Positions 13,338 to 24,104 of a stretch of 24,975 nt of DNA are shown piece by piece. The notes under the pieces are model-generated. The model was not told the DNA's origin. It searched no databases and saw only the letters and a program-made list of their open reading frames with translations. The translations under genes were made by a program, and so were the position numbers. Source of the stretch: a virus; IMG/VR virus record IMGVR_UViG_3300048784_000043, positions 1 through 24,975 of that record; one strand, given 5' to 3'. Positions within the stretch are counted from its first letter, which is position 1, and the number at the start of each line of letters is the position of its first letter.

Positions 13338-13475
13338 GAACTCAGATGAGACGTGCAATCCTTCGGTTGCACTGCCGGCAGTGGTCTGCACTCTCGGTGC
13401 GTGTGGTCAGCGGACGATGAGCGGACGTGACGGTGGCGTGTCCTGACGGGATGGGATGGGGGGTGGCTACTTACA

Positions 13476-13497
13476 AGTAAACTCCCTGGTCAGAGGG
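13476..13497 (+). repeat. AGTAAACT motif, copy 2
   Basis: AGTAAACTCCCTGGTCAGAGGG, matching 2538-2558 with one extra C and one substitution. It overlaps the palindrome at 13496-13509 at its end. There is no clear -35 upstream, so a simple promoter explanation does not cover both copies. Confidence 0.45.
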
Positions 13498-13548
13498 GGT
13501 GCGCACCCCACGCCGCACCATGATTCTCGGTCTCCGTTTGGCCCTTCG

Positions 13549-13962
13549 CAGAGAGAGATAAGCGGTGGAGCTTCCACACCTTCGATCCGTTTTCCCTGCT
13601 CAAGCCTCAAAAATCGCAGCTACTGAAAAAATCTCGTGCCTCTCTCTGAGGACAACCCAACCCGCTTTTGGTTGGGGCGTCAGTCCAACTGAGCGAAGCG
13701 AAGGCGGAAGGCCTTGCGGGGATGGGGAACGATGACGCGACAGTGGAGCTAGAACCCCAGGTCGGATTCTAGAAAACCAGCTGCCTTCGTATCCGTAACC
13801 TCGGGTGATCAGGGATACTCTCCCGTCTCCTTCTCCCTGATACCGGTCTCGCTCACAAGGTCCGCACCTCTGCGGAGGGATGGCCTGGGAAGGACGACGC
13901 CATTGGCTTGGCCACAACACCCCTGTTACACCCATGTCTGGTTGAGCGACTTGTTCTAGTCG
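13549..13962 (-). ncRNA. Candidate structured non-coding RNA
   Basis: About 415 bases without a plausible gene contain a series of perfect stems: 13549-13557/13640-13648 (9 bp), 13656-13662/13670-13676 (7 bp), 13701-13705/13711-13715 (5 bp), 13749-13754/13767-13772 (6 bp), 13808-13815/13834-13841 (8 bp), 13861-13866/13871-13876 (6 bp) and 13947-13951/13958-13962 (5 bp). Loops are purine-rich when read on the minus strand (for example AAAAGCG and GAGG), which favours that strand. The 111-codon minus ORF across it has poor codon bias. Large ornate phage RNAs such as GOLLD or ROOL are possible relatives, but no signature was recognised. Folding at this GC content is partly expected by chance. 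Confidence 0.3.
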
Positions 13963-14002
13963 ACAGCTCGGCGGGAGATTTTGAGATAGTCGGGCCAGGG
14001 GC

Positions 14003-14269
14003 TTACCGATCCCTGGACTTCAAGAGGCATTCGAGATGAACCCAGCCTCTTCCTAGCGTCGGAGATACCCGATCTCCTGGTGAGATGGTGGTACCGCAGG
14101 GCCTACAGAGGCTGCGGTACCGAGCGACGTACTGCCGGCTGTTCCCCATCACCTCTTGCTTTTCAGCCAGGGAAAGACCCGGTGAGTGGGCATCACTGTG
14201 ATTTGACTTGCGCTTAGCAGGAGTCCCGATAGGGAACTCCAAGTGCTCTACGTCGATTGGAAGTTTCAC
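14003..14269 (-). CDS. Zinc-finger protein, possible regulator
   Basis: The C-terminal 45 residues contain RYRSLCRPCGTTISPGDRV and WVHLECLLKS, the C-x2-C ... H-x2-C layout of a small zinc finger found in many phage and bacterial proteins. The upstream part (KRKSNHSDAHSP) is polar. The frame is open to 14392, but that segment overlaps the candidate minus promoter, so GTG 14269 is proposed as start (88 residues); the ribosome site is weak. Codons are less GC-rich than elsewhere, suggesting a separate origin. Its divergent promoter region suggests a regulator of the rightward genes, by inference. Confidence 0.6.
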   Translation of the reverse strand: MKLPIDVEHLEFPIGTPAKRKSNHSDAHSPGLSLAEKQEVMGNSRQYVARYRSLCRPCGTTISPGDRVSPTLGRGWVHLECLLKSRDR

Positions 14270-14347
14270 TTCCGACCCTGAAAGGTGTACTTCATCTGGT
14301 ATCGCTTTCTCTTGACTCAGATGTGGAGCCTGTTGAGAGTTTTCTCC

Positions 14348-14376
14348 ATCCAACACCCGACTGTTCGATATGTCAA
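14348..14376 (-). promoter_or_regulatory. Leftward promoter of the divergent pair
   Basis: Minus strand: TTGACA (14376-14371), 17 bp, TTGGAT (14353-14348). It would transcribe the zinc-finger gene. The -35 is one arm of the inverted repeat 14371-14391. Confidence 0.5.
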
Positions 14377-14391
14377 TACCCCCTATTGACA
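14371..14391. promoter_or_regulatory. Perfect inverted repeat joining two divergent -35 elements
   Basis: TGTCAATA-CCCCC-TATTGACA has eight-base arms and a five-base centre. Each arm carries a TTGACA -35, one facing left and one right. A dimeric protein bound here, or RNA polymerase itself, would make the two promoters mutually exclusive. Confidence 0.65.
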
Positions 14392-14415
14392 AGGCACCTT
14401 GCCATCAGTCATAAT
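14386..14415 (+). promoter_or_regulatory. Rightward promoter with palindromic operator
   Basis: TTGACA (14386-14391), 18-bp spacer, CATAAT (14410-14415), the best sigma70-type match in the window. CAAGGCACCTTG (14390-14401), a palindrome with five-base arms, begins within the -35. No start codon lies at the expected transcript start (about 14422), so this message has a leader of roughly 110 bases with two hairpins. Confidence 0.65.
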
Positions 14416-14455
14416 GAACCTGGTTCTGTGGAAGAACCTGAAGTTGAGAGTTCGA

Positions 14456-14493
14456 CCCCCACACCTGCTGACTGGTATCGCCGGGTGTGGGGG
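14456..14493 (+). terminator. Strong leader hairpin, possible attenuator
   Basis: CCCCCACACC (14456-14465) and GGTGTGGGGG (14484-14493) form a perfect ten-base stem with an 18-base loop, followed by TCCTCTC but no long T run. A smaller hairpin GGTTCT/AGAACC (14422-14438) precedes it. It lies between the promoter at 14386 and the gene at 14532, where it could attenuate transcription or insulate the next promoter. Confidence 0.45.
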
Positions 14494-14516
14494 TCCTCTC
14501 ATGTCTGGACAAGGTT

Positions 14517-14892: not shown

Positions 14893-15420
14893 ATGTCCGA
14901 CACCTCTGATCCCTCGACCACCCCCACCCCTCCGGTGGACCCTACCGATGCGGTACAGACGGAACCTGTCCAGACCGAGCCTGTGCCGGACCCTGCATCT
15001 TCGTCTTCCCCCGCCGAGTCCCCCACCCCCGATTCCTCGGTGCCCGTTGCCAGTTCCGAGCCGGTCGACGCACCGGCCCCTGATCCGTCCGTACCTCCTC
15101 CGGATAGCCCGATCCTTCCGGTTGAAGGAGTCTCTGACTCGCCGGCTCCCGTCCAAGAGACCACTCCGGAGGTCGTACCGGACCCCGTTCCTGCCCCGTC
15201 TCCCACCCCGACCGTTGTCGACGGCCCGCTGCAACAGCAGACCTTCCACGACACCCGTGAGATCGAAGCCGCCCAGCGCGCCGGCCTGACGAGTCCCCGC
15301 GGGCTTCCGCTGAACGACTACGCGCTGGACCAGGTACGCCGGCTGTCGGTGGCTGTCGGAGCCATCGAAGACTGGGCCAAGGAACTTCGCAAGGCAATCG
15401 ACAACATCATCACGTCGTAA
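14893..15420 (+). CDS. Pro/Ser/Thr-rich protein with C-terminal helix
   Basis: Residues 1-115 are almost only Pro, Ser, Thr, Val, Asp and Glu, with repeats such as QTEPVQTEPVPDP, and would be disordered. Residues 116-175 form a helical domain (REIEAAQRAGLTSPRG and SVAVGAIEDWAKELRKAIDN). AGGAGAG precedes the ATG. The plan, a flexible stalk with an anchoring domain, suits a virion-attached or capsid-associated protein. The stop is six bases before the tRNA, so the two are probably co-transcribed. Confidence 0.6.
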   Translation: MSDTSDPSTTPTPPVDPTDAVQTEPVQTEPVPDPASSSSPAESPTPDSSVPVASSEPVDAPAPDPSVPPPDSPILPVEGVSDSPAPVQETTPEVVPDPVPAPSPTPTVVDGPLQQQTFHDTREIEAAQRAGLTSPRGLPLNDYALDQVRRLSVAVGAIEDWAKELRKAIDNIITS

Positions 15421-15426
15421 CAACGG

Positions 15427-15500
15427 AGCGGGGTGGAGCAGTCTGGTAGCTTGTCGGGCTCATAACCCGAAGGTCGGAGGTTCAAATCCTCCCCCCGCCA
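15427..15500 (+). tRNA. tRNA-Met (CAU), initiator-type
   Basis: A 74-nt cloverleaf folds fully: acceptor 15427-15433 with CCCCGCC before A73, D stem GAGC/GCTT, anticodon stem TCGGG/CCCGA around CTCATAA, and T arm GGAGG-TTCAAAT-CCTCC. Initiator features are present: the first pair is an A1xC72 mismatch, the anticodon stem has three consecutive G:C pairs (29-31 with 39-41), and the D stem has A11:U24. The CCA end is not encoded. Bacterial initiators usually have C1xA72, so the mismatch is unusual in type but would still mark the tRNA for formylation and initiation. Elongator function cannot be fully excluded. Confidence 0.88.
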
Positions 15501-15501
15501 C

Positions 15502-15531
15502 TTGACAAGGTTCCTTGCTTCGTGCAAGGAT
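15502..15531 (+). promoter_or_regulatory. Leaderless promoter with two palindromes
   Basis: TTGACA (15502-15507), 18 bp, AAGGAT (15526-15531), six bases, then ATG 15538. CAAGGTTCCTTG (15506-15517) begins within the -35, exactly as CAAGGCACCTTG does at 14390. CAAGGATTCTTG (15525-15536) covers the -10. CCTTGC/GCAAGG (15513-15518 and 15524-15529) could also pair as a hairpin. The -10 is weak, so an activator or repressor is likely to matter. Confidence 0.55.
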
Positions 15532-15537
15532 TCTTGC

Positions 15538-15831
15538 ATGGACCTCGGAGACATCGGAACCGAAATTGCCACCCTCGATGAGGAGAACGGCAAGCGGTTT
15601 GCTGACCTCGCCGCCGGGCGATACGGACCTCCCGTCCAGCTCCAACCCGGAACCTTCGAGTTGCTGAAGCTCACCGTCTACGTGGAGCGCATCCTTGAGC
15701 ACCTGGGCTCGGACCTACTGGATCAGGCCAAGTTGGACTTCGCCAACCACGTCTCCGAAGCCCTTGACAAGTTGGAAGAGGCATCCCGCCGGGCGAAGTT
15801 CACCCAAGGACTGAACGGGAACCGTGGCTGA
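15538..15831 (+). CDS. Small helical protein (97 aa), leaderless
   Basis: The start follows from the promoter position; no ribosome site is present. The product is acidic with an N-terminal DLGDIGTEIATLDEENG segment, a helix ELLKLTVYVERILEHLG and a C-terminal helix with LDFANHVSEALDKLEEASRR. The start of the next gene lies eight bases inside its end, and the pair may act together with the HTH protein that follows. No family recognised. Confidence 0.65.
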   Translation: MDLGDIGTEIATLDEENGKRFADLAAGRYGPPVQLQPGTFELLKLTVYVERILEHLGSDLLDQAKLDFANHVSEALDKLEEASRRAKFTQGLNGNRG

Positions 15832-16780: not shown

Positions 16781-17139
16781 CCGCTGATGAGTTCAAGACA
16801 CTGGTGGAGCGGATGCTCACAGAGGGAGTTCCGCCGGCAGTGGTTGCGCGCATCGTCAACATGGATGTCGACCTCATCAAAGAGGCGCAGAAGGAAGTCC
16901 GGGTCAAGCGGTACGGGACCGACGACCTCAACGACTACTTGGAGCAGATGCAGTGGCGGACCATCGAAGAGGCGATGACCTCGCTTGCGACAGGAAGCTC
17001 GACCGACAAGGCGCGAGTCATGTCGACTGTTCTCGGCAAGCAGATGACCGCCGCCACCAAACGGATGCCTGAGGGTCAGCGTGACGCGGGAGCGAAGATT
17101 CAAGAGCTGATGGCGTCGATGCGAGGGGATGATGGGTAG
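16777..17139 (+). CDS. Putative terminase small subunit
   Basis: GTG start. The 120-residue, all-helical protein begins with a helix-turn-helix-like part (FKTLVERMLTEGVPPAVVAR and IVNMDVDLIKEAQKEV), continues with an oligomerisation-like helix, and ends with a basic/acidic tail. It overlaps the large terminase gene by eleven bases, the usual place for the small subunit that recognises phage DNA. Length is at the lower end for the family. Assignment is from position and fold. Confidence 0.6.
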   Translation: MTADEFKTLVERMLTEGVPPAVVARIVNMDVDLIKEAQKEVRVKRYGTDDLNDYLEQMQWRTIEEAMTSLATGSSTDKARVMSTVLGKQMTAATKRMPEGQRDAGAKIQELMASMRGDDG

Positions 17140-18847
17140 GCCGCAACTCGATCTCTGGCCGTGGCTTGAGCAGTTGACCCTGAAACCGAAGAACGCCCGG
17201 CCGATCAAGTTCGACCGCAACTCCCCCTTCGCCTGGGCGCAGCGACAGTTCGTCGCGGAGGTGGAGCGTCAGTACAACGCGGGACTGCCGGTGAGGATCA
17301 TCGTGCTCAAGGGTCGACAGATCGGCATTTCCACCGTCACCGAGGCGATCCTGTTCCTGTGGTGCTTCCTCCACCCCGGCACCAACGCAGTGGTGATGAG
17401 CAAGGACGACGACTCTTCCAACTACCTGTTCGGGATGAGCAAGAGGTTTTGGGAGACCAGCCCATTCAACGGGCCGTGGACGACGAAGTACAACCGCATC
17501 GGCTACTTGGAGTGGGAGATGTCCCCGCTCAACTCCACCTTCACCACCGTCACTGCCGGATCGGACAACCCCGGACGAGGCATGACCATCCAGGCCGCGC
17601 ATCTTTCGGAGTGTGCGTTTTGGGAGGACGCTGACAACGTGGCCGGTGACCTGGGCGAAGCCATCCCCGACAACCACGGAACGATCATGGTGCTGGAATC
17701 CACCGCCCAAGGTGTCGGTGGATACTTCCACGACGAGTGGGCGAAAGCCCAGGACGCCACCGGGGAGAAGTCTCCCTTTCACCCGTTCTTCTTCGAGTGG
17801 TGGAAGCACGAAGAGTACGAGGTCACAACCACCCACCTGAAGTACGGCGATCTTGACGAGGAAGAGAAGGAGTTGCTCGACACCTATCCGGCCATGACCA
17901 TTCCGAAACTGGCGTGGAGACGGAGGAAGATCGCGACCTACCAGAATCCGGAGACGTTCAAGGAGGAGTACCCCAACTCCATGGAGGAAGCTTTTTTGTC
18001 GACCGGATCGAACGTCTTTCCTCTCGCCAAGTTGGCGCAGATGTACGAACCAGACGTGGTGTACGAGCAGGGGTTTCTCTTCAACGACAACGGGAAACTT
18101 CAGTTCCAACCCGACGACGACGGCCACTTGTTCATCTACAGGCAACCCGATCCGCGGAGGCGCAGACGGTACGTGGTGTCTTGTGACCCGACGTGGACGG
18201 TGGAGGGAGACCCCGCCTGTATCCAAGTCATCGACCGGGCCTCCATGGAGCAGGTGGCCGTGTGGCACGGAGCCGCCGACCCGAAGACCATCGGTGAGAT
18301 CAGCCTTGCCATCGCTCTCTACTACGGACCCGAGGCCATCTTGAACACCGAGATTCAAGGGGGAGGGAAGGTCGTCCTCGCCGTGTGGAGAGAGGCCAAC
18401 TACCAGCACATTTGGATGGACCGACGCCCCGACCGCCCCAAGGTGATGATGCAAGCCTTCGGATGGAACTCCACCTATGAGACCAAAAAGCAGATGCTCG
18501 GGACCATGCAAGGGATCATCCACCGTCAGCAGGCGTTGATCCACCACCCCGCCACCTACTACGAGATGACCCGGTACGTCACCAACGAGGACGGCACCTA
18601 CGGGCCTTCGCGGAGGTCCGGGCACGACGACACCGTGATTTCCCTAGGGATCGGGTGGATGACGGTCGTCACCGAAGGCCAGTCGTTGGACTACGCCGCC
18701 CTCGGGGCGAGTCCCCAGCCGTACATCCCCGGTATCTCCCGACCTCAGATTCCCAACATGGGGTCAACTCCAACCCTGCTCGGAGCAGGTAGGTTTGGGG
18801 AACCGATGGACAGCGACGCCATGATCGGAATAGAGGAAACGTACTGA
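17129..18847 (+). CDS. Terminase large subunit (ATPase and nuclease)
   Basis: A 572-residue DNA-packaging motor. The ATPase part has a Walker-A-like KGRQIGIST (61-69), a Walker B region ending HLSECAFWED with E161 as likely catalytic Glu, and a coupling-like STAQG near 191-195. The nuclease part has SCDPTW with D353, NTEIQGGG with E408, and SGHDD with D500/D501, the three acidic sites of the RNase H-like fold. The protein works on concatemeric DNA at the portal. Start ATG 17129 or 17132. Confidence 0.95.
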   Translation: MMGRPQLDLWPWLEQLTLKPKNARPIKFDRNSPFAWAQRQFVAEVERQYNAGLPVRIIVLKGRQIGISTVTEAILFLWCFLHPGTNAVVMSKDDDSSNYLFGMSKRFWETSPFNGPWTTKYNRIGYLEWEMSPLNSTFTTVTAGSDNPGRGMTIQAAHLSECAFWEDADNVAGDLGEAIPDNHGTIMVLESTAQGVGGYFHDEWAKAQDATGEKSPFHPFFFEWWKHEEYEVTTTHLKYGDLDEEEKELLDTYPAMTIPKLAWRRRKIATYQNPETFKEEYPNSMEEAFLSTGSNVFPLAKLAQMYEPDVVYEQGFLFNDNGKLQFQPDDDGHLFIYRQPDPRRRRRYVVSCDPTWTVEGDPACIQVIDRASMEQVAVWHGAADPKTIGEISLAIALYYGPEAILNTEIQGGGKVVLAVWREANYQHIWMDRRPDRPKVMMQAFGWNSTYETKKQMLGTMQGIIHRQQALIHHPATYYEMTRYVTNEDGTYGPSRRSGHDDTVISLGIGWMTVVTEGQSLDYAALGASPQPYIPGISRPQIPNMGSTPTLLGAGRFGEPMDSDAMIGIEETY

Positions 18848-23138: not shown

Positions 23139-24104
23139 ATGGTCACTCCCACCGGTGTCGACACCATCACGTCGATTTCTCGACGCATCCTCCGAGAGGA
23201 GGCCACCGATGTGTACTACCTCGGGTCACCGTTCACGGAGCGACTGTTCCGCCAGAACCGGGTGAAGCGTCGGGGCGGACTCCACATCGAGTCGCGGTTC
23301 ATCTACCAGCCGTGGGCAACCGGTGGAGCGTTCTACGGTCCTGAGGTTCTGAACGTCGAGCCCTCCGATACCGAGATTTCCGGTGCGTGGGACTGGAAGG
23401 AGTACTACACCAACGTGACGCTGGACCAGCGTTCGTTGATCCGTGCGGACTCCGAGTACGCCGTCGCCAACTACGTGGTGGAGCAGTGCGAACTCGCCAA
23501 GATGGACCTGCGGGACAAGATTGCCTACGGCATCTGGTCGGACGGTTCCAACTACAAGGCCATCGACGGCATCTACGAGATCGTGGACACTGGCACCTAC
23601 GCCCCCACCTACGCCGGACTGTCCCGTTCGGCGTACCCGTTCCTGAAGGCGCAGGTCGACTCGACCACCACCACCCTGGGCCTGGCGTCCATGAACAGCC
23701 TGTGGGACCTCTGCACCAAGGGTGCGAGGGCTCCGAGCGTCACCGTCTCCACCCGCGCCAACCTGACCCGGTTCGAGAACCTGCTTCAGGCCCAGGTGCA
23801 GTACACCCAGCCCACCACCGCCGTCGACCAGACGTTCGCCAGCGGTGGCTTCTCCGGTGGGTGGTACCGCAACCAGCCGTGGATCGTGGACGAGCACATC
23901 AACCCGACCGGCACCGAGGGAGTCCTGTTCTTCCTGAACGAGTCGTACTTCGAGCTGGTCATCAACCAGAACGGCGACTTCGAGGTGGGCGACTTCCAGC
24001 AGCCGACCAACCAGTTCGTCATCACGTCCCTCACCTACGTGGCGCTCAACCTGCTCTGCCTGAACCCCCAGGTGCAGGGCAAGTTCACGGCGTTGACGGC
24101 CTGA
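23139..24104 (+). CDS. Major capsid protein (HK97-fold type)
   Basis: The 321-residue protein follows the scaffold-like gene with AGGA before its ATG. It has the common plan: N-terminal helix (SISRRILREEATDVYYLGS), an LIRADSEYAVANYVVEQCEL long helix region, DLRDKIAYGIWSDGSNY, and a late FVITSLTYVALNLL strand-helix. This recalls the family with the pattern of a wobbling W-x-W-K-x-YY and an A-x-x-x-L-x-x-x-IA-x-x-(L/I)-(F/W)-x-DG. No N-terminal delta domain is fused, in keeping with a separate scaffold. Confidence 0.85.
   Translation: MVTPTGVDTITSISRRILREEATDVYYLGSPFTERLFRQNRVKRRGGLHIESRFIYQPWATGGAFYGPEVLNVEPSDTEISGAWDWKEYYTNVTLDQRSLIRADSEYAVANYVVEQCELAKMDLRDKIAYGIWSDGSNYKAIDGIYEIVDTGTYAPTYAGLSRSAYPFLKAQVDSTTTTLGLASMNSLWDLCTKGARAPSVTVSTRANLTRFENLLQAQVQYTQPTTAVDQTFASGGFSGGWYRNQPWIVDEHINPTGTEGVLFFLNESYFELVINQNGDFEVGDFQQPTNQFVITSLTYVALNLLCLNPQVQGKFTALTA

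What the first reader, a model, noticed from the sequence alone, without database searches (positions are those of the whole stretch)
15427..15500. Phage-encoded initiator-type tRNA with an A1xC72 mismatch
Seen: a complete tRNA with CAU anticodon, a mismatch at the first acceptor pair, three G:C pairs in the lower anticodon stem and A11:U24. Known: these are the marks of bacterial initiator tRNA; phage tRNA-Met genes are usually thought of as elongators. The usual mismatch is C1xA72 (or C1xU72); A1xC72 is a different solution. Inference: the phage supplies its own initiator to boost or redirect translation initiation.
Basis: partly seen in the sequence, partly recalled or inferred. Interest (0 to 1): 0.78.

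Follow-up and report, generated by a model that had tools for sequence, protein, structure and literature searches.

The report
Phage-borne initiator tRNA, uncommon end mismatch
A phage from an uncultured-virus collection carries its own start-of-protein (initiator) tRNA; the odd base pair at its tip is uncommon but already occurs in isolated phages and in some bacteria, so this is a further example of a known kind of gene.

Summary
Window 15427-15500(+) is a complete CAU tRNA (Rfam 63.7 bits) with A1xC72, A73, A11:U24 and three G:C pairs at 29-31:39-41. These are initiator marks. Its nearest relatives are all initiators (97.3% to a bacterial one in hand; one Nitrospirota initiator is identical except C1 for A1), while the best elongator-type CAU tRNA is 74%. 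The 3' CCA is not encoded.

The claimed novelty mostly falls. Initiator-type tRNA-Met genes lie in hundreds of phage records, at least one already annotated tRNA-fMet. A1xC72 is already present in cultured phages (five of six mycobacteriophages of clusters C1/C2 checked, and Cellulophaga phi4:1), in 20 other IMG/VR contigs, and in bacterial initiators (12 of 107 matching Nitrospirota genomes). It is one substitution from the common C1xC72. A 2016 survey counted AxC once in 4438 bacterial initiators: uncommon, not new. Related phages with the site readable lack the tRNA, so it looks like recently acquired cargo.

Best reading: a working, formylatable initiator tRNA that tops up or replaces the host pool. 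The most novel reading left open is evasion of tRNA-end-modifying toxins: A1-C72 in E. coli tRNAfMet cut acetylation by AtaT to about 20% (PMC7595197).

The parts
15427..15500 (+). initiator-type tRNA gene, anticodon CAU, A1xC72 mismatch, A73, no encoded CCA
   Evidence: ARAGORN, Rfam RF00005 63.7 bits, arm parse, nearest neighbours all initiators
15427..15427 (+). A1, the unusual first base; differs from C1 of an otherwise identical Nitrospirota initiator
   Evidence: G335
15499..15499 (+). C72, mismatched partner of A1
15461..15463 (+). anticodon CAU
   Evidence: ARAGORN places it at position 35 of the gene
14893..15420 (+). upstream gene (175 aa, Pro/Ser/Thr-rich, no PHROG match), ends 6 bases before the tRNA
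15538..15831 (+). downstream gene; its homologue in relative L181 starts at the equivalent ATG without a tRNA before it
17129..18847 (+). terminase large subunit (places the tRNA upstream of the packaging/head module)
   Evidence: PHROG 2, E 6.3e-21
23139..24104 (+). major head protein used to find relatives
   Evidence: PHROG 9953, E 7e-38

Best explanation
A phage-borne bacterial initiator tRNA gene, acquired as cargo from a bacterium with a C1xC72 (or A1xC72) initiator. It is co-transcribed with neighbouring phage genes, trimmed by host enzymes, given its CCA by the host, charged by host MetRS, formylated because positions 1 and 72 do not pair, and used in the ribosomal P site, where it tops up or replaces host initiator tRNA during infection. 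Shown here: sequence, tRNA class, initiator marks, phage context, absence from related phages, precedents. Inferred: expression, processing, charging, formylation, use in initiation and benefit to the phage.
For: Complete tRNA with all arms intact. A11:U24 is present in 4430 of 4438 bacterial initiators and in none of the elongator Met or kIle genes of the same survey; a 1x72 mismatch is in 98.6% (PMC5143459). The known formyltransferase determinants (1x72 mismatch, A73, G2:C71, C3:G70, G4:C69) are all present (PMC9976931; PMC7949028). Nearest neighbours are initiators at 93-97%, best elongator-type CAU tRNA 74%; a Nitrospirota initiator is identical except base 1. Bacteria carry A1xC72 initiators of their own, so the pair is presumably functional in them. 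A1-C72 E. coli tRNAfMet transcripts were used as Met-charged substrates in vitro (PMC7595197). Relatives sharing the flanking genes lack the tRNA.
Against: No expression data; only one phage species (the window and the contig L008, 100% identical over 13 kb). CCA is not encoded, whereas 14 of 16 unique cellular A1xC72 initiators encode it. The host is unknown, so whether the host initiator differs is unknown.
Confidence: 0.75

Rival explanations
1. The tRNA counters host tRNA-targeting defence: it replaces host initiator tRNA destroyed or blocked by toxins, and A1xC72 makes it a poorer substrate for enzymes that read the acceptor end.
For: Mutating C1-A72 to A1-C72 in E. coli tRNAfMet cut acetylation by the toxin AtaT to about 20% (PMC7595197). 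Phage tRNAs as defence evasion is a published idea (PMC10264068). A1xC72 occurs in several phage groups.
Against: The anticodon loop is canonical (CUCAUAA), so no escape from anticodon nucleases is visible. A1xC72 is also a normal state of some bacteria. With the same strict pattern, A1xC72 is not significantly enriched in viruses over cells (4/9 vs 16/63 unique tRNAs, p 0.25). No such toxin is known for this unknown host.
Confidence: 0.08
2. Neutral passenger: a recently captured host tRNA gene, drifting, with C1 to A1 a random substitution and no benefit to the phage.
For: Single lineage; absent from relatives where the site can be read. One mutation from a bacterial initiator.
Against: All stems and all initiator marks are intact. 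A1xC72 is held by other phages and bacteria, so it is a tolerated state, not decay.
Confidence: 0.14
3. Prophage attachment-site remnant or host contamination.
For: Many C1-type initiator hits in IMG/VR lie within about 100 bases of a contig end, as expected for prophages integrated at initiator tRNA genes.
Against: This tRNA is whole, mid-contig, between phage genes, and on a second identical 13 kb stretch. No integrase matched among the 20 ORFs searched.
Confidence: 0.02
4. Elongator tRNA-Met or tRNA-Ile2 (CAU).
For: Only the shared anticodon; ARAGORN does not separate the classes.
Against: A11:U24, 1x72 mismatch, three G:C pairs, best elongator-type identity 74%.
Confidence: 0.01

Closest known systems
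Bacterial initiator tRNA-fMet genes of Nitrospirota (L169 with A1xC72; G335 with C1xC72)
   Same: Same arms, anticodon, three G:C pairs, A11:U24, A73; L169 97.3% identical and also A1xC72; G335 identical except C1
   Different: Cellular; L169 encodes CCA, the phage copy does not
tRNA-Met of mycobacteriophage clusters C1 and C2 (ArcherS7, Ghost, Sebata, Myrna, Phabba)
   Same: Phage-borne initiator-type tRNA with A1xC72 and A73, no encoded CCA
   Different: Large genomes (about 155-165 kb) with many tRNAs in a cluster; here a lone tRNA on a 25 kb fragment (the longest related contigs are about 38-40 kb). Myrna and Phabba lack the full GGG/CCC stem
tRNA-Met of crAss-like phage cr60_1
   Same: Initiator-type tRNA a short way upstream of the terminase large-subunit gene
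   Different: U1:A72, different sequence, host not given in the record

Membership tests
Bacterial initiator tRNA (tRNA-fMet) | Complete tRNA fold with anticodon CAU | tested here: met
Bacterial initiator tRNA (tRNA-fMet) | No Watson-Crick pair at 1:72 | tested here: met
   A1xC72
Bacterial initiator tRNA (tRNA-fMet) | A11:U24 in the D stem | tested here: met
   GAGC/GCUU; statistics
Bacterial initiator tRNA (tRNA-fMet) | Three G:C pairs 29-31:39-41 | tested here: met
   UCGGG/CCCGA
Bacterial initiator tRNA (tRNA-fMet) | Formyltransferase minor determinants A73, G2:C71, C3:G70, G4:C69 | tested here: met
   sequence; determinants from PMC9976931
Bacterial initiator tRNA (tRNA-fMet) | Charged, formylated and used in the P site | not testable with these tools
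   needs bench work
Elongator tRNA-Met / tRNA-Ile2 (CAU) | Paired 1:72 and C11:G24 | tested here: not met
   A1xC72, A11:U24; best elongator-type identity 74%

The most novel reading that the evidence does not exclude
A1xC72 is a favoured state of phage initiator tRNAs because it keeps formylation and initiation but weakens recognition by host toxins that modify the acceptor end of initiator tRNA, so the phage keeps translating when host initiator is blocked.
Probability: 0.07. Interest if true: 0.7.

Novelty: new member of a known kind. Interest (0 to 1): 0.24.

Why it matters
It shows that phage-borne initiator tRNAs, and the A1xC72 mismatch, are wider than usually noted. It also points to a cheap test: whether 1:72 variants held by phages escape toxins that target initiator tRNA. 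The single locus adds little beyond existing cases.

Tried and rejected
Host by prophage search: the head protein gave no match in 296 genomes of the phylum of the Acidimicrobiia centre and only weak distant matches in 2 of 198 Nitrospirota; the portal gave none in 296 genomes of the Acidimicrobiia class, while viral records used as positive control matched. The host stays unknown. No cultured close relative: best protein identity to phage records is about 20-26%. Degenerate tRNA in relatives: none by Rfam in 8 relatives; the L181 intergenic stretch folds as a hairpin, not significantly (z -1.3). Virus-over-cell enrichment of A1xC72 was not significant in a matched comparison. The cell scan of A1 was also capped.

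Full report
Observation. The window is a 24,975-base IMG/VR record. ARAGORN finds one tRNA, tRNA-Met(CAU), at 15427-15501, and Rfam's tRNA family matches 15427-15500 end to end with 63.7 bits. Reading the arms gives A1xC72, six perfect further acceptor pairs, A11:U24, a G10.U25 wobble, GGG/CCC at 29-31:39-41, loop CUCAUAA, T-loop UUCAAAU and A73. The genome goes on with CUU, so CCA must be added.

Class. In a survey of 4438 bacterial initiator genes, A11:U24 is in 4430 and in none of the elongator Met or kIle genes, and 98.6% have a 1x72 mismatch (PMC5143459). Among 149 distinct CAU tRNAs in hand, the closest to the window tRNA are all A11 types (97.3% for a Nitrospirota one), and the best C11 type reaches 74.3%. 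It is an initiator by sequence. The formyltransferase determinants listed in reviews (1x72 mismatch, A73, G2:C71, C3:G70, G4:C69) are all there.

How unusual is A1xC72? The same survey counts C A 3392, C U 626, U U 207, C C 90, A A 39 and A C 1. Larger present collections show more. A scan of GTDB genomes for A1 initiators with GGG/CCC stems (capped at 120) gave 92 A1xA72, 23 A1xC72 and 3 A1:U72; by record title 19 of the 23 are Nitrospirota MAGs, the rest a SAR324, an Acidimicrobiia, an Actinomycetes and a Proteobacteria MAG. In 107 matching Nitrospirota genomes 12 have A1xC72 (the centre genome, chosen for it, included) and 15 have C1xC72 (my count). In Acidimicrobiia A1xC72 is rare (2 of 198, both found beforehand), while C1xC72 and C1xU72 make up the rest of the matches. 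Nitrospirota genome G335 carries the window tRNA letter for letter except C1. The phage tRNA is thus one substitution from a normal bacterial initiator, or a near copy of an A1xC72 one.

Is a phage initiator unusual? No. The window tRNA matches 263 records of the phage collection and the Myrna tRNA-Met 375, 199 of them Mycobacterium phages; some of these records look like bacterial contamination (for example a Salmonella genome record), so the totals are upper figures. I read 20 records one by one: 19 are initiator-type by A11:U24, the other (RpAliso) did not parse cleanly, and a twentieth, Alone3, has A11:U24 but an irregular T arm under my parser. A1xC72 is in Phabba, Myrna, ArcherS7, Ghost, Sebata and Cellulophaga phi4:1; ScoobyDoobyDoo (A1xG72) is already annotated tRNA-fMet. 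In IMG/VR the A1 scan (57 stretches, not capped) gave 55 well-formed tRNAs, 21 of them A1xC72 counting the window's own copy, 17 distinct sequences. My paper searches found no study devoted to phage initiator tRNAs in the held library; one paper notes that phages generally avoided encoding tRNA-fMet where VapC targets it.

Context. Downstream lie terminase, portal and head protein genes. Twenty-nine IMG/VR loci carry the head protein at 74-100% identity. Only L179/L008, 100% identical to the window over 13 kb, has the tRNA. In L181 and L182 neighbouring genes are present and the tRNA is not. So the tRNA is lineage-specific cargo at a variable spot. It begins 6 bases after one gene and ends 37 bases before the next, which suggests processing from a longer transcript; the best promoter-like site is at 14386-14415. 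The host is unknown.

Mechanism. Most likely the tRNA is made within a phage transcript, processed and CCA-tailed by the host, charged, formylated and used to start translation. All of these steps are inferred. Why A1? Drift from C1xC72 or inheritance is enough. One published measurement keeps a more interesting reading open: changing C1-A72 to A1-C72 in E. coli tRNAfMet lowers acetylation by the toxin AtaT to about 20% (PMC7595197). That test is in E. coli, the enzyme reads other acceptor pairs more strongly, and I find no significant excess of A1xC72 in viruses under a matched pattern, so I give it 7%.

Verdict. Real, correctly read, and ordinary in kind: a further phage initiator tRNA, with an uncommon but precedented 1x72 mismatch.

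Noticed in passing
window 14386-14402, 15502-15518, 15524-15537; L181 1954-1967: TTGACAAGGNNCCTTGC occurs twice exactly, a -35-like hexamer overlapping the palindrome RCAAGGNNCCTTGY; one copy is the -35 of the best promoter-like site, the other starts 2 bases after A73 of the tRNA, followed by a second palindrome GCAAGGATTCTTGC that abuts ATG 15538. L181 has the perfect palindrome abutting the equivalent ATG. Possible repressor operator.
   Followed up: partly
window 14454-14495: Perfect 12-bp inverted repeat just after the promoter-like site; the region folds far better than shuffles (z -5.3).
   Followed up: no
window 13421-14486: About 1 kb with no convincing forward gene between the left-hand genes and the right-hand genes; may be a control region.
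   Followed up: no
IMG/VR A1 initiators among L002-L058: A1:U72 (a full Watson-Crick pair) is in 22 of 55 well-formed viral A1 initiator-type tRNAs, although the 2016 survey found A:U in none of 4438 bacterial initiators.
   Followed up: partly
IMG/VR C1 initiators, L366-L444: Many C1-type initiator hits lie within about 100 bases of a contig end, as if initiator tRNA genes are common prophage integration sites.
   Followed up: no
Clavibacter phage CN1A, L243 from 300: An intact initiator-type tRNA (U1:A72) lies where the record annotates no tRNA.
   Followed up: no
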